DNA of 64,000 nucleotides from positions 10,862 to 74,861 of the forward strand of contig NZ_QSUN01000017.1 in the NCBI RefSeq assembly GCF_003438995.1. The letters run 5' to 3'. The notes under the pieces were generated by a model. It saw nothing but the letters and a program-made list of their open reading frames with translations. It made no database searches and had not been told where the DNA came from. Source of the stretch: Bacteroides sp. OM05-12 (GTDB lineage Bacteria > Bacteroidota > Bacteroidia > Bacteroidales > Bacteroidaceae). Positions 14,093 to 53,334 of the stretch are shown here, piece after piece. The first letter of the stretch is position 1, and each line of letters opens with the position of its first letter. Position numbers and translations under genes: made by a program.

Positions 14093-14121
14093 GTTTATCC
14101 GTCAATCTTTCAGCTTCATAA

Positions 14122-14209
14122 TTTTCAAGTACCCGTATCTTTGTTTTCAAACATACGGTCGATTGAATTCAAACATACGGTCGATTGATCACAAACGTCC
14201 GTATGTTTT
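14122..14209. repeat. 22-bp-period tandem array (4 units)
   Basis: Four consecutive 22-bp units start at 14122, 14144, 14166 and 14188. Units 2 and 3 share an identical 20-bp segment containing CAAACATACGGTCGATTG; the outer units are degenerate (CCGTATCTTTG and CAAACGTCCGTATG). The array lies in the 416-bp gap between bglX and the discoidin-GH3 gene and shares the TACGGTCGATT core with the arrays at 34 and 53 kb. Confidence 0.8.
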
Positions 14210-14233
14210 TTCAATCATCATAATTATTATATA

Positions 14234-29766: not shown

Positions 29767-29853
29767 ATTATATATCATTTTAGGTATAACAAAAAGTTTT
29801 GTTTCTTATCTTTAACCCTAATTAGTATTCCCTCGAATAACATTTTAGTAATG

Positions 29854-29861
29854 CAAAGATA
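29854..29861 (-). promoter_or_regulatory. -7 element of the susC operon
   Basis: The minus strand reads TATCTTTG, an exact TAnnTTTG match, about 88 nt before the susC ATG. A TTG at 29884-29886 (22-nt spacing) may serve as a weak -33 box. The leader of about 80 nt is the usual place for post-transcriptional control of susC genes. Confidence 0.6.
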
Positions 29862-30043
29862 AAGATATATGTAATATAAGAATCAACAAAACGCCTCACA
29901 AAAACTCACTTTTAACACATAACGAATACGACATTAATACATCATAGTACTAATTATAACACTGATAATCAATAATATAATTACAAATAGTGTTTTATAA
30001 CATAACATTTATCAGCTCAACAATTCAAAAAAAATAGCTAAAC

Positions 30044-34076: not shown

Positions 34077-34155
34077 ATGAATTATATTGCCACAGATTAT
34101 TATTCATATAGGAATTAAATCAATTCCAACTTTTAGGATGCAGCTCAAAAGATAG

Positions 34156-34218
34156 TGCCTTCACTTTAATTAAATAGTAATCAATAATATAAGAGCAAAC
34201 AGTGATAAGGTGAAGGCA
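34156..34218 (+). repeat. CCTTCAC hairpin element, copy A
   Basis: TGCCTTCAC (34156-34164) and GTGAAGGCA (34210-34218) are perfect 9-bp inverted arms around a 45-nt AT-rich interior. The same arms occur at 52900-52960, whose reverse complement also matches the interior in part (TTCACTnTAATTA near one arm, AAACnGTGA near the other). Confidence 0.7.
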
Positions 34219-34282
34219 AGTCTAAGTAAATTAAATAACAGTTAAATCGGTAAAATAAGCAAGCTAAAACGCCTAAGGGAGC

Positions 34283-34524
34283 GTTGGCTTACGCTCCGGT
34301 AGATGTAAGCTATCGCTCCCTTGAGCGTTAGCCATCGCCCCCTTAAGTGTCAGATGACGCTCCCTTGAGTGATTTACAAAACGACCTTTATAGTTTTTAC
34401 AAACATCAAGGCGTTTTTTAAATTCATCAGGTTGATTAGAAAAACCATAAGGACGATTGTAAATAAAGATACGGTCGATTGCCAACAAACTCCTATCGTT
34501 TGTAATCAATCGACCGTATCTTCA
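34283..34524. repeat. 22-bp-period tandem array (11 degenerate units)
   Basis: Eleven consecutive 22-bp units run from 34283 to 34524. The early units share a TCGCTCCCTTGAG core. The later ones drift to ACAAACATCARG and then to AAGATACGGTCGATT. The last three units form a palindromic block: GATACGGTCGATTG and its exact complement CAATCGACCGTATC enclose ACAAAC-TCCTATC-GTTTGT. The array ends 36 bp from the stop codon of the TPR-AraC gene. It is not coding, because the period is not a multiple of three and units accept single-base changes at every position. Confidence 0.8.
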
Positions 34525-34560
34525 TTAGACTGAAACGAATGAATAGAATGAGAAAAAAGC

Positions 34561-42653: not shown

Positions 42654-42671
42654 TAGTCCTTTGATATAATA

Positions 42672-42713
42672 AAGAAGGTGGGTTCTTATCGCAGAATCCA
42701 CCTTTCTTTTATT
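42672..42713 (+). terminator. Terminator of frdCAB
   Basis: AAGAAGGTGGGTTCT (42672-42686) pairs with AGAATCCACCTTTCTT (42693-42708) with G-U and one mismatch allowed, followed by TTATTTT. Confidence 0.75.
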
Positions 42714-42767
42714 TTATAAGTTTACTTATTCAAACCATACCCCACTATCCAAAAGGCTTGCCGAATT

Positions 42768-42923
42768 AGCTATCGCTTCCTGACAAACTAGCTCGTTTCT
42801 CTCAAGTAACTGCCTATCTCATATAATGTGCAACAAGTCTTTCACAACTGTGCAAATCCTCTTTCACATATTGTGAAAGATGTCTTTCATATATTGTGAA
42901 AAAGGAAGTTTTACATCGGGCAA
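42768..42923. repeat. 22/23-bp-period tandem array (7 units, partly palindromic)
   Basis: Units start at 42768, 42790, 42812, 42834, 42856, 42878 and 42901; five are 22 bp and the last two are 23 bp. Units 4-6 share CTTTCACA...TGTGAAA, so each is itself palindromic (TTTCACA-TAT-TGTGAAA in unit 5). The first unit's AGCTATCGCTTCCT resembles the AGCTATCGCTCCCT of the 34-kb array. It lies in the 335-bp gap between the convergent frdB and CE8 genes. Confidence 0.7.
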
Positions 42924-42988
42924 CAGTTACCTTCCTTGAGCCGGAAGATAACTCCGCCCGAAGCGGGAGATATATGTATTAGCTCCGC

Positions 42989-45900
42989 TTATCTAATCAC
43001 AACCTTAGCTGATTTAATGCCCTCTTCATTTCCGGCTTTTACAATCCAAAAACCAGCACCGAGTTGTAAACGAGCATCCTCATCCACACGCAATGTCTTA
43101 ACCAACGCTCCGTCCATTCCATAGACACTAATAATAGCTTGGCCGCGAACACCATTCACGTAAACATTTACTCCGTCTGTAGATATAATCAAAGAATTGT
43201 CAGAAAGCACCTGCTTACAAATTCCGGTAGCATCATCTTGCTCTATAAGCGCAGGAATAGGATCCCAACTATCATTTCCCTTTGTGAAGTTGAGCGTTGT
43301 AATGGCCGTACCGTCGGACAGAACCGGTTCTGTCAATACAGTAGACCAATCAGCACGTGCAGAAGCAGCATCTTCGGTCTCTTCAATTGTTCCATACTCG
43401 TAACAAAGAGGAGACGTACCGCCCAAACTGTTGTTCCATCCTTCCGGCTTAATTAATGATTGTCCGTTATAATCCGGATGATTGCTTGTTCCTATCGTGG
43501 TATTGTAGAATACTACCTCTGCCGTATTGGCTTGCCACGGTCTTCCGAAATATCCCGGTTTGGAACGATAAGCAGAAGCAGTTTCTATTTCCGGTTCGGC
43601 AGATGTAACTTTACACTCATACATCAGATAACCTCTTCCGCTACTCTGCTGTGCTGCCGTGATATAAGAGACATCATTGTTGTTTTCGCTCGTATTCATC
43701 GCCAGTTCACTCTTATAGAACACAGCCGTCATACCGCCAAAGATATAATCGGTTCCACCCATCATCACTCCTTTATAAATAGCAGCTCTTACATTCGTAC
43801 CACCATAGAAAGAGTCTTGACGACCTACAACCCGGCATTTATTAAGAATAACCTTATCCGTATTATTTGCTATTGCAATGGCAGCCGCACGTTCTACAAA
43901 GCTCTTATCCTGTACTGCCGTACTGCCCACTTGTGTCGGACGTGTGCCCTTACCTCCGGTCACCCATTCCACAACGACATCTTCGGATTCTTTCTTGGAT
44001 ATATATTGGTTATAAGAGTTCTCAAAGATGATGTTCTCTGCTTCAAAACCATCGGCACTCACTACAACGGTCGCATTCCAATAAGAATTATTAGTCGTAC
44101 CGCTTCCGGTATTTACGTAAGACAAATAGCCATTCTCTTTATTTACTTTCAAGGTTTCCTCGTTCCACTGCTGATTACCGGCCATACTATAATAGCTATA
44201 TCCATGACCATAATAAGAAGTAATACGAACGGCACTTTCATCTATATCAACACCTTTGTTCTTCAATGCAATGCTTGGTTTTACGGCAGCATTAATCAAA
44301 GAGACATTAGGAATATCGACCACTAACATTTCTTCATAATTCCTCGGTTCGATCATAATCTTCACCCGTTCATTGTTAGGACGAGTCATACATCTTACAG
44401 TTTCCAATGCAGCATTGATTGTAGTACACTCCTTATCTGTACCCACATATATTGTTTCTGTATAAGGGATTACTTTAGAAACTCTAATCTCCGTAAGATA
44501 AGTAGGCTGCACACTCCCGGAACCATCAGCTTTGCTATAAGCATCACCAAAAGCAAGCGTCACAACACCACTCCCCTCTCCTGTATACGTGTACTCTACA
44601 GATTCAAATTTACTGGTACTACCCGCAGAAGTGGTTGTTTTAATCTCTTCGCCTCCGTTAATCGTAAAGTTGGCAGCATAATAATAGGTAATAGTGACCT
44701 TACTTCCTTTTTCTACCGGAACAGCGATCGTAGCTCCACTAGGTGCCAGCAAGTGCCCTTTTGCTATCTCATTCTTTATGCTTCCGGTAAATGCCAAGCC
44801 TTTATAAGCCGTAGCTCCATTAGCAATCACCTGATCATCAAATGACCAAACAGACACAGGCTTAAAGGCAATACTCTTTTCTACCGCCCTTCCTTCTACT
44901 TTTAGATTGGAAGTCAGAGCCTGTTGCAGAGGATATTCATCCAAACCGGATACCGCAACAGAATATACACCATCTCTCAGTTTAATATCCGAAAGAGAAG
45001 CAAAAGAATAACTGTATCCTTCCTCATTCAGATTTGTAAAAGTCACACTCATCTTAGCTGTTTGTTCCGAAGCCAGACCTTCTGCATTAAGCGTCACGGT
45101 ATAGGTAGGTTTAGCTTGGAAGAGGATATCCTTTGACATATCTCCGGTGATCGTTATTTTATCATCCGTCAATTGATAGTCATTCACTCCTTCTGCAGAG
45201 ATTGTATATTCACAATTCGGTTCCAACTGCACTGTATAAGTCTTGTTCGTGAAATCGACACTGGGTTCCGGAACATAAATCTTTGTTGTAGCCGGAGTAT
45301 AAACAAGAGCTAATTTACCTATCACGGCATCTAATCCCGTAATATTCCCCGTTACCGTATATAACTCAAGTTTAGTAACATGTACATCATGCGACAAATC
45401 TTCCGCATTTACCTCAACAGTAGTCACATTATCGATAATATAACCGTTTGCATTGGAAAGGCTTATTTTATAGGTATATCCCATTGGAAGTTTAACCTCA
45501 TAATTTCCGTTATTGACAGTGGCATCCCAAGTCTTTCCCGCTTCATTCGTAAACTGAACACCGTAGCCTTCCGGCAGAGCAATATCCGACTGAACAGGTC
45601 CATGTACCTTTGCATAGACAACCGGCTTTCTCAAAACACGAAAATAAGAAGGCTTATCTTCACTGTCGAAAATCTTATATGTTCCTTTAAACTTAGCCAC
45701 AAACTTCACTAATGAACCATTGGACGAAGCTGAAGCAAAATCAGTTTGTTTATCAGGATCATTCGTATAAACGAAATTAAGTTTGCCGTTACCATTTTGA
45801 GAATTACAATAAAGCAACACCTCGTCATCCTCATTCAGATTCAGGCTCAAGAATCTGCCTACTTGGGCAGCACCATTTACATATAAATATCCATTCAGCG

Positions 45901-46666
45901 TTTCGCCTTCTATTGTAACCGCTTGCTTATCATCGTAACGAGTCAAATTTGTGTTGGCTGTACGAAGTCTGTCATTCGAACCACCCGTCCAACTTAAAAT
46001 ACCGGCAGTAAAACCTGAAGGAAAGTTATTTCCTGAACTTCCAACTTCAATAGCCGGATCATACCATCCATTGATAAGCTCTACCGTCAACTGGTTATTG
46101 TACTTCGTATCGTCCAATTGATCGGCTCCAAAATCCCAAACGTCGGTTAATCCGTTCGATTCTTCGGTTATTACTGCCTTAACAGCGATATTAGGAACAT
46201 AAGTTTCCGCTTTTTCAAATGCTATCTTTAGAGTTGTAGCAGCACCGGAGTAACTAAATTCCAAGATATTACTATTATCTTCATGATAACATTTTTCTGT
46301 TTTGGATTCTTTTGTACCCAAAGAGGCACCGGATGCGTCAGAAACAGAAACTTGCCCTTTACTATATCCGCAGCCCGCAATCTGAAGATTAACATCACCG
46401 GCAACATCTATCTCAATAATATTACCTTGCTTAAATATAGAGCCATGTTGAGCACCGTTATAACCATAAGCATTCTGAGTACCCACCAAGATTCTAAAAA
46501 TACCATAATCAATGTTGGATTTACCGTCTGTGTCAGTCGGCACAATACTTCCGTCCGTCAAATCAAAGAAATAGTCCTGTCCTTTTTCCGGGGTTGTTAC
46601 TTTATCTGCATACGCCCAAGAAGCAATGAGCAACCAAGCGAATGCCAGAAGAATTTTGTTTTTCAT
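42989..46666 (-). CDS. CE8 pectin methylesterase, large multidomain, T9SS-like tail
   Basis: A 1225-residue secreted protein whose C-terminal part is a carbohydrate esterase family 8 pectinesterase, demethylating homogalacturonan. The signal peptide is about 1-20. Residues 20-735 hold a beta-sandwich of carbohydrate-binding appearance and several transthyretin-like or Ig-like modules I cannot name. The CE8 beta-helix is at about 740-1130, starting IYVGTDKECTTINAAL. The catalytic Asp is in GRQDSFYGG (about 945), the second Asp in GGTDYIFGG (about 970), and Arg/Trp in FGRPWQ (about 1040). The end (SVYGMDGALVKTL, GAGFWIVKAG) is a T9SS-like tail. No pectate lyase or GH28 is in the window, so it stands alone. 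Confidence 0.87.
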   Translation of the reverse strand: MKNKILLAFAWLLIASWAYADKVTTPEKGQDYFFDLTDGSIVPTDTDGKSNIDYGIFRILVGTQNAYGYNGAQHGSIFKQGNIIEIDVAGDVNLQIAGCGYSKGQVSVSDASGASLGTKESKTEKCYHEDNSNILEFSYSGAATTLKIAFEKAETYVPNIAVKAVITEESNGLTDVWDFGADQLDDTKYNNQLTVELINGWYDPAIEVGSSGNNFPSGFTAGILSWTGGSNDRLRTANTNLTRYDDKQAVTIEGETLNGYLYVNGAAQVGRFLSLNLNEDDEVLLYCNSQNGNGKLNFVYTNDPDKQTDFASASSNGSLVKFVAKFKGTYKIFDSEDKPSYFRVLRKPVVYAKVHGPVQSDIALPEGYGVQFTNEAGKTWDATVNNGNYEVKLPMGYTYKISLSNANGYIIDNVTTVEVNAEDLSHDVHVTKLELYTVTGNITGLDAVIGKLALVYTPATTKIYVPEPSVDFTNKTYTVQLEPNCEYTISAEGVNDYQLTDDKITITGDMSKDILFQAKPTYTVTLNAEGLASEQTAKMSVTFTNLNEEGYSYSFASLSDIKLRDGVYSVAVSGLDEYPLQQALTSNLKVEGRAVEKSIAFKPVSVWSFDDQVIANGATAYKGLAFTGSIKNEIAKGHLLAPSGATIAVPVEKGSKVTITYYYAANFTINGGEEIKTTTSAGSTSKFESVEYTYTGEGSGVVTLAFGDAYSKADGSGSVQPTYLTEIRVSKVIPYTETIYVGTDKECTTINAALETVRCMTRPNNERVKIMIEPRNYEEMLVVDIPNVSLINAAVKPSIALKNKGVDIDESAVRITSYYGHGYSYYSMAGNQQWNEETLKVNKENGYLSYVNTGSGTTNNSYWNATVVVSADGFEAENIIFENSYNQYISKKESEDVVVEWVTGGKGTRPTQVGSTAVQDKSFVERAAAIAIANNTDKVILNKCRVVGRQDSFYGGTNVRAAIYKGVMMGGTDYIFGGMTAVFYKSELAMNTSENNNDVSYITAAQQSSGRGYLMYECKVTSAEPEIETASAYRSKPGYFGRPWQANTAEVVFYNTTIGTSNHPDYNGQSLIKPEGWNNSLGGTSPLCYEYGTIEETEDAASARADWSTVLTEPVLSDGTAITTLNFTKGNDSWDPIPALIEQDDATGICKQVLSDNSLIISTDGVNVYVNGVRGQAIISVYGMDGALVKTLRVDEDARLQLGAGFWIVKAGNEEGIKSAKVVIR

Positions 46667-46915
46667 ACTATCTATTGTTTTATTAATTAAATTGGAACAA
46701 AGGAATAGCTTTCCACGACAATAAATGTGTATTTTCTATTTTGTAATGTATAAAAACTGATATTCCCGTTTAAGAAACCTATTACTACTACTGTATAGAC
46801 GAAGTATCTTTATGTGATTATTTTGAATTAAACACATACAAAAAGATAATCCGTGCACGGAAACGATATGTTTTAGTGAAATAATATTAAAAGAAAGCAT
46901 AGAAAAGCAGAAACA

Positions 46916-46947
46916 TTTGGAGTGAATACTCAAAAGCCATACATTTG
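46916..46947 (+). promoter_or_regulatory. Promoter of a candidate small RNA
   Basis: TTTG at 46916-46919 and TACATTTG at 46940-46947 match both Bacteroidota boxes with exactly 20 nt between them, one of the best-spaced promoters in the window. No coding gene follows on this strand before the terminator at 46994. Confidence 0.6.
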
Positions 46948-46952
46948 CAATG

Positions 46953-47019
46953 TGATTTTTTTCATAGTATTAGATTTAAGGTTAACAAAGGTTGGAGTCA
47001 GGCGTGACTCCTTTTTTTT
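46953..47019 (+). ncRNA. Candidate small RNA (~67 nt)
   Basis: A predicted transcript would start about 6 nt after the -7 element (46947) and end in the terminator stem-loop at 46994-47011 with its T8 run (47012-47019). The span contains no open frame of more than a few codons. It lies in a 451-bp gap between two minus-strand genes and so is not the leader of either. It could be a trans-acting sRNA or the leftover leader of a lost gene; the rest of the gap (46667-46915) shows nothing I can name. Confidence 0.45.
46994..47019 (+). terminator. Strong plus-strand terminator
   Basis: GGAGTCA (46994-47000), loop GGCG, TGACTCC (47005-47011), then eight T residues. It is oriented on the plus strand, where no protein gene precedes it. 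Confidence 0.8.
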
Positions 47020-47060
47020 GCCCGTACAGTTCGTAACCACAAAACGCTTAAAGACTTCTC

Positions 47061-47094
47061 AAAAAAAATAGGGCCACTCAACGAGCAGCCCTAT
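47061..47094 (-). terminator. Terminator of the 47-50 kb surface protein gene
   Basis: On the minus strand ATAGGGC pairs with GCCCTAT (plus coordinates 47088-47094 and 47068-47074), followed by a run of T (A-run 47061-47068 on plus). It lies 24 bp downstream of the stop at 47118. Confidence 0.8.
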
Positions 47095-47117
47095 AATCAA
47101 ATAGTTTCAAACCTCTT

Positions 47118-50100
47118 TTAAGGAATTATCACCTTAAATGATTTGCTACCGACATTACTAATCGCCTTGATAATATAATTTCCGGAATTCAAATTCTTAA
47201 TTACTTCATCTTGACTGTTGACTTCCGTTTTATGCATAATTACACGTCCGGTAAAGTCATAAACGAAGACTTCGGCATCCTCTCCTGCTAAGATCTGATC
47301 TATTCCGGAACCAGTTTCTGTATTATTAACCGAAAGAGGAATAAACAAATCTGCTGCACCACGTGACGAAACTTTTATATAAGCGTCATGTACTCCAAGC
47401 TGATCAGAAGCAAAAGTAAAGTTAAACGAGCCGCCCGTTGCAGGCAATTCAGCTGTGGAAAGTTTAAACTTACTAGGATTAGCGCCATCCAACACCAGTT
47501 TAATCGGTTCTGTCAGGTTCTTTGCCGTAATCGTAATATTATCCGAAGTAGATTCGACGTTCACCTTAGCCGTAAATGAAACGGATTTTGCAGAAGAAGT
47601 CATAGTTGGCAAATCTGTACGTCCGTAACTTACATCATCTATATAATAGATAGCTGAAGATTCTTTTTCAACTCCTTTAAATCGGAATCCCATAAAGAAT
47701 ACATCATGGAAACCTTCTGCTTCTGCCAAATCAATATGATATTCATACCATTCTCCATTTTCATCGGCAATGCTCGGCATCTCAACACCTGCTTGCGGAT
47801 TAATATAAAGCTCTCCGTCTTTCATATCCAAATAGCACAACTCTAAAGTAGCCGGTTGCCCTTCAAACAGGTTTGTTCCCATCACACGGAAAGTAAACAT
47901 CTTAGAAGCAGCATTCTTATAATCAAGTGCAGGAGTTACCAATAGCATATCATGTGATTTTGCCTCCGTCGCATTCATAACATAAGCTGTAACTTTTGCA
48001 CTCCTTTCAAGAACGTCTCCGGACTCATTTTTATGTTCATATCCCCACCATGCGCGCAAACCTGCCTGTGCCAGATTCTTCCATCCGTCTATCTTCAACG
48101 GTTTATTACTTGTTACATTATCAAAATGTTCATTCAATAATATACGAGGATTAGAAACGTCCAATGGTAATTCATCACCTTCTTTTTCCGGTATAATCGT
48201 ACTTGGAGTAGCTACACCCTTGACAGTTAAATAGAAATCTTCCATCTCTATAGATGAGAACTTAATACGATCAACAAAAGTACCTGCCACTTTCGGGGCA
48301 AACGTTATTACCAAATTCTGGTTTGTATTCACTTTAGGGAACTGAGTGCTGGATATTCTAAATGAATCACCACTTCCTTCATCATGCATTACTGCCACGT
48401 TCAGATAGTCAGGTAAACCTGTAGTTGTAAACGTAATTGTTTGTTCCTGTGTTTTCTCCGCCTCTACAGAATAATCCACTAATCCAGAAGAGTTCACTGT
48501 CAATGTCGGAGGATTTGCCGGATCAATCGCTACTCCCGATAGATTAATGGCTTTATAGAAGCCACTCATTGCATCGCAAGTAATTGTTAAGCGTGCATTT
48601 TGATGTAAAGCCACAACAGAAGAATTGTAAGTCACAATAACTTCCGTTTTGCTGTTACCCGCAGGAATCTCTGATACAGAAGTTTGGAAATAAGCCTTAT
48701 CTGTCCCGGTAACTTCAATAACAACAGGACCGGTTATTTGATTGGCAACGACTGTCAATCGTCCTAACTCGACAGCCTCATTAATATTAGTCTTTTGTCT
48801 ATCAAACTTAGTAACATCCGGAGTTATTTCCAGTTTAGATTCCGTATCTGCTATGATATCAGCACTTGAACGAGGAGCGATGAGTTTACCTGTATTCAAA
48901 GTAGACACACCTATCAGGTTCTTTATCATAAAAGGAATATCCATACCTACAAAATCCATATCCGAAAGTACCCAAATCTGTGCATTGCCTGTACCATCAC
49001 TAATTTCCGGACGTTTACTTACATCCGTTTCAAATTTAGCACCTGTAACCCAATTATCAACTGTTATATTTTCTATTTCTATCAAGCGAGATTCATAAGT
49101 ATCTGGATTATCAGCCAATTCCTTCAGAGTCACCTTTATAGGAGTTATCGGATTATCTGAAGATACTTTTGTTCCTAAATCTGTTATTCCACTTATAGGC
49201 AACAGCAGCAATGGGCTAGTAGTTTCAACAACTCCACGCAGTCCTCGTATCTTATCTCCAACTTTATAATTTACAGTCACATCATCCCAAGCATCTCTTA
49301 TTCTTAATCCATTTTCTCCATCCTGCAAACAATAGTTAGTCTTTCCTTGTGTATCTTTATAGATATATGTAATAATAGCATCACCTGTCACACGGCAGTT
49401 TGTTTCTTTAGCAGGTTTCGTAGTTCTAAGAGTCTTAATATCAGCAAAATCAGTAAGAGTTATGACCTCCCAATAAGCTGTTAATTTCGCATCCGTAGCT
49501 CCTTCACTGCTAAACAAAAGATCCCCCATAAAACCTTCAGGTTCATTAGCTACCAAACTTACAGTTAAATCAAATCCATCTTCCGATTCGGCCTGTTCTT
49601 TAGGGATTGTTGTTACAGAAGGTTTTAATTCATCAGCAACCGAGCTGGTAATCGTTATATCGTCTGTAAGATTCTTTCCTTTTACATTTACCGTTTGCGA
49701 ATTAGTTTCTCCCTGAAAAACATAATTATATAAAAGCATTTTTTTAGATAAAGTTATTTCTGGGGTAGGAACCGGCTCAAGACCAAATAACTCTCCATAG
49801 CTTTGAGCAACTCGAATAGCTCCTATAAGTAAATTCGGACAATTCTTGCTTCCAGATTGCCCCTGCCTTAGTTCTATTGCCTCAAAGCCTCTAGCCGTAT
49901 TAACATCACTACCAGAGCTTTGATTATAAACAGCGGCAGGGGATGGTTCAGTTACCCCAATCGCAGGATTTACAAATACAGAAACTTCATCATTGGTGTC
50001 TCCTTCTTTAATTTCATATTTAAGCACGACTAAGTAAGTCTCATCAATAGAATATTGATTTTCTGAATACATAATTGTTGTATTATTACGCGACACACCA

Positions 50101-50609
50101 ATATAAAACTTATCCGGAGTATCTCCATTCTTTACATACAATTTAGCAAATTCTAATCCTGTTCCTCCATCTTTAAAAGCAGATGTGCCTTTAGCTACTA
50201 AATTAAAGAAATAAGCCTCTTTTCCTGCTTCTACATCAATACTTTTAAAATTCATTAAAGCACTTACATAGACAGCCCCCTCCTTTACTCCTTCTGTCGT
50301 AAATTGTTTCTGCAAATCTTGCCCTGATGCTGTTGAAGTTATTTCTACGGCATTATATACAACATCAGCATTATTAGGATAACCTTCATAAGTTAAGTTT
50401 GCTGATATGACCTGAATAGGAGCTACTGAATTAGTTCCATATTTTACCCAACTACCTTGAGAATACAAATCTTTTAATTCATAATTAAAATCTTCTGTCA
50501 TTAACACCTGTGCATTTGCACCTAACGAAAATAATGCTAAAAATACAACCAACATTGTACTTCTAATGGAAGAAACAAAGATTCTTCGGTTAAGTCCACT
50601 TTTACTCAT
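47118..50609 (-). CDS. Large secreted multidomain protein with T9SS-like tail
   Basis: A 1163-residue secreted protein without an obvious catalytic centre. The signal peptide is about 1-34 (ending LGANAQ). An N-terminal lectin-like beta-sandwich (about 35-270) is followed by a segment resembling DUF5689/OB-fold nuclease-associated domains (about 390-590, RDAWDDVTVNYKVGDKIRG). Ig-like modules come next, then a choice-of-anchor-J-like domain (about 820-980, ILLNEHFDNVT to IYYIDDVSYG), and a T9SS-like tail (VFVYDFTGRVIMHK, GNYIIKAI). The role is unknown; adhesion or polymer binding at the surface is possible. It is divergent from another T9SS-tail protein gene 132 bp away, suggesting a shared control region. 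Confidence 0.7.
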   Translation of the reverse strand: MSKSGLNRRIFVSSIRSTMLVVFLALFSLGANAQVLMTEDFNYELKDLYSQGSWVKYGTNSVAPIQVISANLTYEGYPNNADVVYNAVEITSTASGQDLQKQFTTEGVKEGAVYVSALMNFKSIDVEAGKEAYFFNLVAKGTSAFKDGGTGLEFAKLYVKNGDTPDKFYIGVSRNNTTIMYSENQYSIDETYLVVLKYEIKEGDTNDEVSVFVNPAIGVTEPSPAAVYNQSSGSDVNTARGFEAIELRQGQSGSKNCPNLLIGAIRVAQSYGELFGLEPVPTPEITLSKKMLLYNYVFQGETNSQTVNVKGKNLTDDITITSSVADELKPSVTTIPKEQAESEDGFDLTVSLVANEPEGFMGDLLFSSEGATDAKLTAYWEVITLTDFADIKTLRTTKPAKETNCRVTGDAIITYIYKDTQGKTNYCLQDGENGLRIRDAWDDVTVNYKVGDKIRGLRGVVETTSPLLLLPISGITDLGTKVSSDNPITPIKVTLKELADNPDTYESRLIEIENITVDNWVTGAKFETDVSKRPEISDGTGNAQIWVLSDMDFVGMDIPFMIKNLIGVSTLNTGKLIAPRSSADIIADTESKLEITPDVTKFDRQKTNINEAVELGRLTVVANQITGPVVIEVTGTDKAYFQTSVSEIPAGNSKTEVIVTYNSSVVALHQNARLTITCDAMSGFYKAINLSGVAIDPANPPTLTVNSSGLVDYSVEAEKTQEQTITFTTTGLPDYLNVAVMHDEGSGDSFRISSTQFPKVNTNQNLVITFAPKVAGTFVDRIKFSSIEMEDFYLTVKGVATPSTIIPEKEGDELPLDVSNPRILLNEHFDNVTSNKPLKIDGWKNLAQAGLRAWWGYEHKNESGDVLERSAKVTAYVMNATEAKSHDMLLVTPALDYKNAASKMFTFRVMGTNLFEGQPATLELCYLDMKDGELYINPQAGVEMPSIADENGEWYEYHIDLAEAEGFHDVFFMGFRFKGVEKESSAIYYIDDVSYGRTDLPTMTSSAKSVSFTAKVNVESTSDNITITAKNLTEPIKLVLDGANPSKFKLSTAELPATGGSFNFTFASDQLGVHDAYIKVSSRGAADLFIPLSVNNTETGSGIDQILAGEDAEVFVYDFTGRVIMHKTEVNSQDEVIKNLNSGNYIIKAISNVGSKSFKVIIP

Positions 50610-50706
50610 ACTTCAAGTTTTTAAGATATTAGTCACTTTTAAATCAAAACAATAATCATTATTGCAATTTTAGTTATAATTTACAAGAAATACAAATATT
50701 ATTGTA

Positions 50707-50714
50707 TATATTTG
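50707..50714 (+). promoter_or_regulatory. -7 element of the PKD protein gene
   Basis: TATATTTG matches TAnnTTTG, 27 nt before ATG 50742, in the 132-bp divergent gap. I could not find an equally good element for the minus-strand gene. Confidence 0.5.
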
Positions 50715-50741
50715 CAAATAAACTTAAAATAGCACAGAAAC

Positions 50742-52694
50742 ATGAAGAAGATTTTCATTTGCACCATCATAGGTATAATAATCGGATACGAAGTAAATGC
50801 TCAAAATGTGAAAGCGAATTTCACAGCTGAAGAGTGCACAAAAGAAGTATATAAACAAGGATTTGATTCAAATCAAGATTTAGCGGAATGGACATTAACA
50901 ACTACGAATGAAACAAATACTTGGTATTTAGGAAATTCACGAATTACAGGTATTCCTCCATTTAGCTCTATAGATCCAACCAGTATTAACTCACTGGCAA
51001 TTAAATATGATGCCAAGAATGCTCAGAACGAGTCTATAACTTCCCCTGAAATGAATATTGAGTCAAATAGTTTCTGTACATTCTATGCTTGTTTTGACGG
51101 AGTTTTCGTTATGTATGCCAATCTTACAATAGAAATCATAAATACGAAAACTCAACAGAAAGACGTCCTTTTCGACGCTTTCTTATGGTCACAAGAAAGC
51201 GGTCATGAACGTCCTAAATGGCAATTCTTTAAGTATGATTTATCTGCCTATACGAATCAAACGGTTCAATTCATTATCACATATAAAGGAATGGATGGTG
51301 ATGATGCACTAATCGATAATTTCTGTATTATTCAGGAAAGTAATGATGAAACAAGCACTGCTAACATACAAGAAGGAGGGCAAGTACATTTTAAAGATAC
51401 ATCAACAGGAAATCCGACTACTTGGGAATGGACTTTCGAAGGAGGAGAACCAGCTACTTCTACAGAGCAAAATCCCGTTATCACCTATAAAACATCCGGT
51501 AACTATCCGGTAAAGCTTATAGCAAAAAATGCAAATGGCAGTAATGAATACAGCAGAACAGATTTTGTAATGGTAAAAGGGGTAGCCCCCATAGCCGCAA
51601 TAGGATGGCCCGATGAGGGGTATTTATCTCCTTATACCGGCATTTTTGTTCCTACCCAAACAGATATACATTTTACTGATATCTCGCAACACTTACCTAC
51701 CGCATGGAAATGGACTCTTACTGGAAGTTCACAACCCACATCGACAGAACAAAACCCTGTTGTACGTTATAATAAAGAAGGTATTTATGACGTAACTTTA
51801 CAAGTAGCAAACAGTTCAGGAACAGATTTTGTCGACTACAAAGAAGTTATTCAGGCCGGAGGAAAACAATATATATGGAACATAGAAATGCAGGAAACGG
51901 AAACATTAGAAAGCATTTACTTCCCATTCTTCGGTTATTACGGAGGTTCAAATTGGTTAGGAATGTTAGCATTTGCCGAACATTTCCAAAAACCGATAAC
52001 ACAGGGAAAGATTTCAGAAGTTTCCATTTTCTTCGCGTCGACCAGTACTATAACTCCGGATGCACTCATCACGGTTTCTATAGCGCAATCGCAAAATGGG
52101 CTTCCGGGCAATAAATTAGCCTCAGCCAGCATTCCGGCAAAAGAACTGCAATATAGTGATGATACTTGGTTGCCTACTGATTTTAAATTTGAGAATCCGG
52201 TAGAGATCAATGAAGAATTCTTTGTCATAGTAGAAGGAATTCCTAATAATACATCAGACAAAGGAACAGACGATATTGCCATGCTTTGCACCGCCAGACG
52301 TCCTGACGGCAGCAAATCTACAGTTTATCACCTGTTAGAAGAACAAAACGACGACGGAACACCAACAGGAAAGATAGAATGGTTCAAAAATACAGACGAG
52401 TTCCTCTCTTTCGCTATCGCACCGTTATTCACTTATACCAATGTCAGTAGTTCTATAAACAATAGCGTAGACAAGCAACAAATAAGTATTTGCCCATCGG
52501 TCATACAAAATCAAATAGAATTATTTGATACAAACAATATTGAAAACATTACAATATATACTTTATTAGGACAACAAGTTTATCAGGCAATAAATGCCTC
52601 TCCTATTAATGTAAGCCACCTACAAAAAGGGTTCTATATTATACAAGTAATCAAAGACCAACAAAAGTATACACAAAAAATTTATATTCAATAA
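50742..52694 (+). CDS. Secreted PKD-domain protein with T9SS-like tail
   Basis: A 650-residue secreted protein. Signal peptide about 1-20 (ending EVNAQ). An N-terminal choice-of-anchor-J-like beta-sandwich (about 35-205) has the pattern WQFFKYDLSAYTNQTVQFII...ALIDNFCI. Two PKD domains follow (about 215-280 and 295-375), each with TTWEWTFEGGEPATSTEQNP- or TAWKWTLTG-type motifs. Another beta-domain (about 390-570) resembles those in peptidases and in the N-terminus of the Omp28-like protein at 62.3 kb (use of GLPGNKLAS, EEFFVIVEG). The end is a T9SS-like tail (NITIYTLLGQQVYQ, GFYIIQVIKDQQ). No protease catalytic motif is seen. It is single-gene, ending at a terminator 8 bp downstream. Confidence 0.75.
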   Translation: MKKIFICTIIGIIIGYEVNAQNVKANFTAEECTKEVYKQGFDSNQDLAEWTLTTTNETNTWYLGNSRITGIPPFSSIDPTSINSLAIKYDAKNAQNESITSPEMNIESNSFCTFYACFDGVFVMYANLTIEIINTKTQQKDVLFDAFLWSQESGHERPKWQFFKYDLSAYTNQTVQFIITYKGMDGDDALIDNFCIIQESNDETSTANIQEGGQVHFKDTSTGNPTTWEWTFEGGEPATSTEQNPVITYKTSGNYPVKLIAKNANGSNEYSRTDFVMVKGVAPIAAIGWPDEGYLSPYTGIFVPTQTDIHFTDISQHLPTAWKWTLTGSSQPTSTEQNPVVRYNKEGIYDVTLQVANSSGTDFVDYKEVIQAGGKQYIWNIEMQETETLESIYFPFFGYYGGSNWLGMLAFAEHFQKPITQGKISEVSIFFASTSTITPDALITVSIAQSQNGLPGNKLASASIPAKELQYSDDTWLPTDFKFENPVEINEEFFVIVEGIPNNTSDKGTDDIAMLCTARRPDGSKSTVYHLLEEQNDDGTPTGKIEWFKNTDEFLSFAIAPLFTYTNVSSSINNSVDKQQISICPSVIQNQIELFDTNNIENITIYTLLGQQVYQAINASPINVSHLQKGFYIIQVIKDQQKYTQKIYIQ

Positions 52695-52701
52695 TTCCGA
52701 T

Positions 52702-52740
52702 TCATCCCTGCTACAATAGTGTGGTCAGGGATGATTTTAT
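52702..52740 (+). terminator. Terminator of the PKD protein gene
   Basis: TCATCCCTG (52702-52710) pairs perfectly with CAGGGATGA (52726-52734), followed by TTTTAT. Confidence 0.75.
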
Positions 52741-52899
52741 TCTTAAGACTTATCCCTTTACTCTCATCCGATATTTATAAAAATCTTACTATTGAAAAAT
52801 CAAGCTTACAGATGAAATCTTATATTAAATCCTGATGTAGTGCTTATCCACAAACATCAATATCCCTTTTTATGCATATTTTCATAATTGTATCCGGAT

Positions 52900-52960
52900 T
52901 GCCTTCACTCTTCACGGTTTGGAATAAACCTCTACTGAATAGCTAATTACAGTGAAGGCA
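52900..52960 (-). repeat. CCTTCAC hairpin element, copy B (inverted)
   Basis: TGCCTTCACT (52900-52909) and AGTGAAGGCA (52951-52960) are perfect 10-bp arms, with an internal GGTTT-GGAAT-AAACC hairpin at 52916-52930 and CTTTTTT after the right arm. The reverse complement aligns with copy A at 34156-34218. Because of the T-run it could also terminate plus-strand transcription. Confidence 0.7.
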
Positions 52961-53046
52961 CTTTTTTCAGTTAAGAATTGAGAGTTGAGTATGGAGAGCT
53001 CTTTTTGTTCGCCCATTTTGACTACCACAAACAATAGTAAAAAATA

Positions 53047-53109
53047 TGTATTCACTATAATTGATTACATATCAACACTATACATTCTAATCGTGAAGAG
53101 GTGAAGGTA
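53047..53109 (+). repeat. CCTTCAC hairpin element, degenerate copy C
   Basis: Same length as copy A (63 bp) and same orientation. It has TTCACTATAATT near the left end and CGTGAAGAGGTGAAGG at the right end; the left arm has decayed. It sits 53 bp before the 22-bp array, as copy A does at 65 bp. Confidence 0.5.
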
Positions 53110-53161
53110 GTTTCAACCTTTTTTCAATTATATCAAATAAGCCCTAAAACACTGTTGGAGT

Positions 53162-53315
53162 CTATAAAAATCATCTTGATGCTTTTTACAAATACCACGA
53201 TGTTTTTAAAAAACATCAGGTTGATTGAAAAAAACATCAGGACATTTGTAAACAAAGATACGGTCGATTATCTACAAACTCCTATCGTTTGCAAACAATC
53301 GACCGTATGTTGAAT
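53162..53315. repeat. 22-bp-period tandem array (7 units)
   Basis: Seven exact 22-bp steps start at 53162. Units 3 and 4 share AAAAAACATCAGG. Units 5-7 (AAAGATACGGTCGATT, ACAAACTCCTATCGTTTG, CAATCGACCGTAT) match the last three units of the 34-kb array in order. The outer arms ATACGGTCGATT/AATCGACCGTAT are inverted. The array ends 20 bp from the dprA stop codon. The rest of the 640-bp gap, outside the terminator and hairpin elements, shows nothing I can name. Confidence 0.8.
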
Positions 53316-53334
53316 AGCAGGTACTTCTTTACTT

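What the first reader, a model, noticed from the sequence alone, without database searches (positions are those of the whole stretch)
34283..34524. Dispersed family of degenerate tandem arrays with a strict 22-bp period
Eleven 22-bp units follow each other without gaps, and each unit drifts from the last, so the period is better conserved than the sequence. Three other intergenic gaps in the window (14.1, 42.8, 53.2 kb) hold arrays of the same period. All four are just 3' of the stop codon of a minus-strand gene. A 22-bp step is close to two helical turns, so an array of protein-binding sites or a 3'-end RNA structure are both possible. The last three units contain a 14-bp perfect inverted repeat around a second, inner hairpin. 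I know of no described Bacteroidales element with this design.
Basis: partly seen in the sequence, partly recalled or inferred. Interest (0 to 1): 0.72.

Follow-up and report, generated by a model that had tools for sequence, protein, structure and literature searches.

The report
Two-turn palindrome arrays across Bacteroidales
Between the genes of many gut and oral Bacteroidales lie small arrays, most often of about four palindromes set 22 bases (two DNA turns) apart; the spelling differs from species to species but the spacing and symmetry do not, which points to a DNA-binding protein not yet identified.

Summary
In the window, lag-22 self-match at 34283-34524 stands 7 sd above shuffles; weaker arrays lie at 14.1, 42.8 and 53.2 kb (the last has period 21). 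Most arrays are also inversion-symmetric, with dyad centres every 10.5-11 bp. In 428 sampled intergenic gaps of Bacteroidaceae, Parabacteroides and Prevotella, 60 hold a significant tandem period, 52 of them 20-23 bp or about twice that; in 187 control gaps of other bacteria it is 2 of 12. Prevotella sp. F0039: 15 of 15. In a Bacteroides luti-like genome one family has at least 49 dispersed 72-bp copies with four TGTACA boxes at 22-bp steps. Copies at orthologous loci of a relative change almost only within the motif RAASAWWN. This fits a 22-bp two-fold-symmetric protein site set in abutting rows better than an RNA hairpin: no consistent stem covariation, no sense-strand bias, no general preference for 3' ends. 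Each lineage has its own sequence family. BrickBuilt (Porphyromonas, 23 nt) is the nearest described relative. The binding protein and purpose are unknown; cooperative binding by a homodimer is inferred.

The parts
34262..34525 (.). Array A: 11-12 units of 22 bp; units at about 34284-34371 share a CGCTCCCTTGAGCG-type core, units 34372-34525 an ACATCAGG / ATACGGTCGATTG-type core, in one register
   Evidence: Lag-22 identity 45.5% over 34283-34524, z 7.0; best RC symmetry 0.73, above all 60 shuffles; limits by eye
34466..34522 (.). 16-bp perfect inverted repeat (34466-34481 / 34507-34522) around an inner hairpin at the end of array A
   Evidence: folded
14116..14213 (.). Array B: period 22, shares the ATACGGTCGATTG word with A and D, with two identical consecutive units (14146-14188)
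42808..42940 (.). Array C: about four TTTCACATATTGTGAAA-type palindromes at 22-23 bp, 3' of frdB; limits by eye
   Evidence: scan segment 42847-42905
53146..53318 (.). Array D: period 21, shares words with A and B, 3' of dprA; 12-bp inverted repeat 53258-53269 / 53297-53308; upper limit by eye
   Evidence: scan segment 53146-53255

Best explanation
The arrays are rows of abutting, two-fold-symmetric protein-binding sites. Each site is one palindrome of 21-23 bp (two helical turns), so neighbouring dimers would sit on the same face of the DNA and could bind cooperatively; about four sites is the commonest length. They belong to dispersed intergenic repeat families that spread by copying, can grow by exact tandem duplication of one unit, and drift, while the dyad symmetry, the pitch and the core letters are kept by selection. 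Each lineage has its own core, so the binding protein (not identified) must be one that changes specificity, or one of a paralogous set. The likeliest role is chromosome-wide (nucleoid or domain organisation) rather than control of single genes. Shown: pitch, symmetry, dispersal, lineage-specific sequence, and, for one family, conserved position and motif-limited change. Inferred: the protein, cooperativity, and the role.
For: Pitch: 52 of 60 significant gaps among 428 (scan) against 2 of 12 among 187 control gaps. Symmetry: complement comb beats mirror comb in 60 of 64 lattice arrays, p 7e-11, but in 5 of 20 arrays of other periods. Family F1: four-box pattern 49 hits, reversed control 0; half-site logo RAASAWWN from 288 half-words of 48 distinct copies. 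Eleven orthologous pairs: A columns changed at 2 of 198 sites against 26% in flanks (p 2e-22); columns 6-7 changed only A<->T, 19 of 19 (p 2e-11); column 4 C<->G 5 of 7. Prevotella family AGCANTGCT twice at 22 bp, up to 3 mismatches: 304 hits against 2 for the reversed pattern. Genes beside F1 look like unrelated housekeeping genes (read by eye; Pfam for ten chosen of 37 5'-adjacent ones).
Against: No binding protein was searched for, and none is known. The TGTACA boxes were the search pattern for most copies, so their conservation is not independent evidence; the linker columns are. Ten of the eleven F1 pairs differ at 2-15 of 48 linker positions and one copy looks flipped (L207/L198: 57 identical forward, 62 reversed), which gene conversion could explain. 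Three sampled genomes (G127, G039, G183) gave no array in 40-60 kb each. F1 copies, unlike the whole set, are scarce in divergent gaps (5 of 48). Correlations between half-sites of both signs are unexplained.
Confidence: 0.55

Rival explanations
1. REP/MITE-like selfish repeats: the palindromes are what a transposase acting in trans recognises, and the copies are relics or passengers without host function.
For: Dispersed copies; one 72-mer identical at two G155 loci (769605, 2776082) with different flanks; some G209 copies share 160-640 bp at 85-88%; BrickBuilt, the nearest relative, sits in a MITE (PMC4596501).
Against: Six of six G209 copies in five stretches chosen from G209 positions alone lie at loci where G155 also carries the element, while flanks of the eleven pairs differ at 26%; A columns change at 2 of 198 sites, not expected of decaying relics. 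The F1 logo has no GTAG tag. A parent element or transposase was not searched for.
Confidence: 0.25
2. RNA-level element: strings of small hairpins in transcripts (3'-UTR stabilisers, terminators, RNA-binding-protein sites).
For: The second half of A and array D fold far better than shuffles as RNA (z -4.6 to -10); all four window arrays fold better on the strand of the minus-strand gene they follow; two half-site pairs of F1 (0-3, 2-5) agree more than shuffled copies.
Against: Over 32 arrays in codirectional gaps (G209 included) sense folds better in 13, antisense in 19; the strand difference follows G+T content (rho -0.70) and the window has GC skew -0.15; the other stem-forming half-site pairs of F1 do not agree beyond chance, several less; no terminator-like site in gap A; 12 of 52 arrays lie in divergent gaps.
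Confidence: 0.12
3. A neutral mutational process with a 22-bp ruler (strand switching in hairpins, slippage) makes palindromic lattices without selection.
For: Units drift along an array with cores changing in register (array A; L258); exact or near-exact 22-bp duplications (array B; G010); ortholog changes that look like local inversions (L183/L191, L142/L190).
Against: Column-specific constraint in orthologs; exactly four boxes in F1 copies; the same core in tens to hundreds of loci.
Confidence: 0.08

Closest known systems
BrickBuilt (Porphyromonas gingivalis), PMC4596501
   Same: Intergenic, tandem unit of 23 nt without spacers, 19 places in strain ATCC 33277, predicted stem-loops; its published degenerate 23-nt consensus is cyclically palindromic at 18 of 23 (p 0.04)
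   Different: A longer minisatellite inside a MITE with leader, tail and IS5-like ends; the paper reports no BLASTn match outside P. gingivalis; consensus and end absent from the window
PINSR (Prevotella intermedia/nigrescens group repeat), PMC4755523
   Same: Intergenic, 177-184 copies, limited to one clade, about three quarters conserved in place, no terminal inverted repeats (section 14)
   Different: Described as a 188-bp repeat; that section reports no 22-bp period or palindromy; the sequence is only in a figure, so it was not compared
REP elements with RAYT transposases, PMC3733652 (start of abstract and passages)
   Same: Palindromic units in many intergenic copies
   Different: REPs of 20-40 bp bear a GTAG or CGTC end tag; here pitch is fixed at two turns and F1 has no such tag
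Iteron or tandem-operator arrays (recalled, no call)
   Same: Rows of sites at whole helical turns bound cooperatively
   Different: Those lie at one origin or promoter; here tens to hundreds of dispersed loci beside unrelated genes

Membership tests
BrickBuilt MITE | 23-nt consensus unit | tested here: not met
   0 matches in the window at up to 3 mismatches; other genomes not searched for it
BrickBuilt MITE | terminal repeat GAGACCTTCGCA | tested here: not met
   0 matches in the window at up to 1 mismatch
PINSR | 188-bp consensus sequence | not testable with these tools
   Consensus is in a figure; two P. intermedia accessions tried are not held
REP/RAYT | GTAG or CGTC tag beside each palindrome | tested here: not met
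   F1 logo NWWTSTTYTGTACARAASAWWN has no such tag; other families not tested
REP/RAYT | RAYT gene in the genome | not tested
   -
MITE | terminal inverted repeats, target duplication, parent IS | tested here: inconclusive
   F1 is near-palindromic throughout; target duplications and a parent IS were not tested
CRISPR array | invariant repeats separated by unique spacers | tested here: not met
   Units abut and drift
FopS and other Rfam RNAs | covariance-model match at the arrays | tested here: not met
   Only gathering-score match in the window is FopS at 46952-47021, outside the arrays; none in ten other loci
Intrinsic terminator | stem-loop followed by a T run | tested here: not met
   0 found in 34108-34560; other arrays not scanned

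The most novel reading that the evidence does not exclude
Bacteroidales chromosomes carry an order-wide, undescribed class of nucleoprotein site: rows of about four abutting two-turn palindromes, tens to hundreds per genome, whose pitch and symmetry are kept while the spelling is replaced in each lineage, together with a fast-evolving dimeric binding protein: a chromosome-organising system or the product of an arms race.
Probability: 0.4. Interest if true: 0.88.

Novelty: new variant of a known kind. Interest (0 to 1): 0.72.

Why it matters
If the arrays are protein sites, a large gut and oral bacterial order has a chromosome-wide DNA-binding system that annotation does not see: in Prevotella sp. 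F0039 15 of 46 sampled gaps of 100 bp or more hold one. Conserved geometry with replaced sequence is unusual; it could link separately named lineage-specific repeats (BrickBuilt, perhaps PINSR) into one class, and it makes the search for the cognate protein a simple pull-down. It also warns that such gaps can be mistaken for terminators, sRNAs or VNTRs.

Tried and rejected
Rejected: CRISPR remnant (no spacers), known sRNA family (Rfam: only FopS elsewhere in the window; none in ten loci), intrinsic terminator (gap A only), regulon of one function, phage or plasmid origin of array A's second half (no plasmid match; only staphylococcal phage matches at E 0.04). Tried and weak: window arrays folding better on the minus strand looked like RNA evidence, but over 64 arrays the strand difference follows G+T content, and after removing it sense wins 17 of 32. 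Lattice beyond the four F1 boxes: 4-bp palindromes at the next box positions are no commoner than elsewhere; only weak symmetry peaks (0.39-0.41 against a mean of 0.27, sd 0.045) remain at -33 and +99, which are lattice positions. The dprA 3' gap in relatives: of 26 gaps of 100 bp or more, six have period 20-23 or 43 at p 0.03 or less, two others periods 41 and 15 at p 0.005 or less, so arrays come and go at one site. Literature: ten searches of one open-access library listed no paper whose title or abstract start describes this 22-bp palindromic lattice; subscription papers are mostly not covered. Papers seen: PMC4596501 abstract, passages and section 8; PMC4755523 passages and section 14; PMC3733652 start of abstract and passages; PMC5771137 start of abstract and passages. 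Not tried: search for the protein or for a RAYT or parent transposase.

Full report
Setting. The window is Bacteroidales DNA: DprA is 69% identical to that of Bacteroides luti and 3.6 kb around the frd operon align to it at 80% nucleotide identity. No whole genome is held for it. Genes in all scans below are mechanical ORFs of 80 aa or more, so 'gap' and 'orientation' are approximate.

The observation. Autocorrelation over 34283-34524 peaks at 22 (45.5%, z 7.0) and 44 (z 4.9); 95% of shuffles have no lag above 35.3%. Over their whole gaps B and C peak at 22 (z 3.1 and 4.0), D at 42 and 21 (z 3.7 and 3.2); B just fails and C and D just pass the same limit. With a maximal-segment score all four exceed a threshold reached by 1.7% of shuffled gaps. 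A, B and D share words such as ACGGTCGAT; C and the first half of A have other cores.

Symmetry. Reverse-complement matching shows dyad centres every 10.5-11 bp, two per unit, in most arrays: 11 of 16 arrays tested beat all 60 shuffles, the four window arrays among them. In the larger set, a comb of complement symmetry beats the same comb of mirror symmetry in 60 of 64 lattice arrays (p 7e-11), and in only 5 of 20 arrays of other periods. So these are tandem arrays of palindromes, not merely tandem repeats.

How general. I scanned every gap of 100 bp or more in sampled stretches for the best period between 10 and 60 bp. Bacteroidales set, all groups: 488 gaps, 74 over threshold, 64 with period 20-23 or 42-46. 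Leaving out G209, whose stretches were chosen around known copies: 428 gaps, 60 over, 52 lattice; the window itself (4 of 6) and one G267 stretch (1 of 1) in that set were also not chosen blindly. Period 22 alone accounts for 50 of the 74. Named records: Prevotella sp. oral taxon 299 F0039 15 of 15 (46 gaps), Parabacteroides distasonis 5 of 5 (24 gaps), Phocaeicola massiliensis 3 of 4 (47 gaps), Bacteroides finegoldii 1 of 1 (8 gaps). Controls (Acinetobacter, Proteus, Hymenobacter, Spirosoma, Photobacterium, E. coli; 500 kb, 187 gaps): 12 over, 2 lattice, one in Proteus at 20 and one in Hymenobacter (also Bacteroidota) at 22. Three Bacteroidaceae genomes sampled at 40-60 kb (G127, G039, G183) gave none. 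A first scan of the window and 54 loci fetched for other reasons gave 25 of 149 gaps over a 1% threshold, 17 of them lattice.

Families. In G155, about 95% identical to B. luti DSM 26991 over 18.5 kb, 17 of 20 significant gaps in 420 kb are lattice. Their cores differ (GATGTACATC, TTGTACAA, CACCCGGGTG, ACATGTACATGT and others), and some recur. The TGTACA family (F1) has 49 places with four boxes at 22 bp and none for the reversed control pattern; no two of these overlap, so none has five. The three-box pattern, which also catches a second family, gives 116 hits in G155 and 135 in G209 (controls 3 and 4) and occurs in 5 of 41 genomes of the genus, in quantity in these two. Prevotella F0039 has one dominant family: AGCANTGCT twice at 22 bp, up to 3 mismatches, 304 hits against 2. 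Array D as query had a match at E 0.01 in 6 of 109 genomes; of the loci shown, arrays are visible in G273 (L249) and G267 (L250, L258, L259), while others lie in coding sequence or show no array. The commonest array length, estimated from the scan segment, is four units (17 of 52), then five (13).

Constraint. Half-words of F1 read RAASAWWN after the box: columns 2, 3 and 5 are A in 276, 282 and 287 of 288. Six G209 elements in five stretches chosen from G209 positions alone (L244-L248) all have the element at the G155 ortholog; of four further stretches chosen near known places three elements have one too (one with a box changed) and one could not be placed. In eleven orthologous pairs the 72-bp elements keep 57-72 identical bases while flanks differ at 26%. 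Linker substitutions by half-word column 1 to 8 number 16, 1, 1, 7, 0, 10, 9, 16; those in columns 6-7 are all A<->T (19 of 19, p 2e-11), in column 1 all A<->G, in column 4 C<->G in 5 of 7. Columns 2, 3 and 5 change at 2 of 198 sites. This is what a protein motif with R, S and W positions would leave; W and S degeneracy suggests minor-groove or shape readout (inference). The boxes themselves were the search pattern in these pairs and are not counted as evidence.

RNA or DNA. The second half of A and array D fold well as RNA, D better on the minus strand (z -10 against -5.9), and all four window arrays have the lower energy on that strand. But over 32 arrays in codirectional gaps sense wins 13, antisense 19; the strand difference follows G+T content (rho -0.70 over 64 arrays) and the window has GC skew -0.15. 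In F1, half-sites that would pair in the long hairpin (0-5, 1-4, 2-3) or across the inner boxes (1-2, 3-4) agree less than in shuffled copies (z -1.3 to -3.2), those within one linker do not or weakly (z 0.1, 1.8), and two pairs at the outer flanks of boxes 2 and 3 (0-3, 2-5) agree more (z 3.9, 3.6). GU against AC departures in sense orientation are 83 to 68. Arrays sit in divergent gaps (12 of 52) about as often as gaps do (109 of 428), and in codirectional gaps are nearer the upstream 3' end in 15 of 26. F1 copies alone are rarer in divergent gaps (5 of 48).

Mobility. One 72-mer is identical at two G155 loci (769605, 2776082) with different flanks, and some G209 copies share 160-640 bp of flanking sequence at 85-88%, so copies spread in the past. 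Neighbours of F1 look like unrelated housekeeping genes: ten proteins that I chose among 37 5'-adjacent ones include four tRNA synthetases, UvrB, a phosphoribosyltransferase, a glycosyltransferase and a HU-HIG protein.

Compared with the known. BrickBuilt (PMC4596501) is a 23-nt tandem unit in a P. gingivalis MITE; its consensus is cyclically palindromic at 18 of 23 (p 0.04), so it may be a homogenised case of the same design. PINSR (PMC4755523, section 14) matches in copy number, clade restriction and positional conservation, but its sequence could not be tested. I call the finding a new variant of a known kind (dispersed intergenic palindromic repeats), with an open possibility that the kind is a new nucleoprotein system.

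Noticed in passing
window 42654-53334: dprA and frdB are convergent neighbours within 0.4 kb in B. luti and six other genomes among the loci held (L001, L007, L084, L085, L086, L098), and 0.7 kb apart in L112, but the window has 10.7 kb with three large ORFs between them, with array C at one end and array D at the other: perhaps an insertion into an array-bearing gap.
   Followed up: partly
window 46952-47021: FopS paralogous sRNA (Rfam RF04319, 70.7 bits), the only gathering-score Rfam match of the window; not part of an array.
   Followed up: no
window 29822-29890: A weak fifth array (period 23) in a divergent gap, below threshold (score 14.5).
   Followed up: no
L277-L282 (Prevotella F0039): 13 of 15 arrays fold better on the record's + strand whatever the gene orientation, a polarity that the weak GC skew does not clearly explain.
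   Followed up: partly
L250, L255, L257, L258, L259 (G267): Repeated mostly non-coding sequence of several hundred bases; in L258 it carries adjoining lattices with changing cores.
   Followed up: partly
L225:1011-1451: A HU-HIG family gene (Pfam PF18291) 65 bp from an F1 element; a conceivable but untested binder.
   Followed up: no
L293 and L294: G209 contig C1 repeats part of C2 exactly over 4140 bp: duplicated region or assembly overlap.
   Followed up: no
L168 (G010): A near-perfect 22-bp VNTR of TGTACA units, a homogenised array like BrickBuilt.
   Followed up: no
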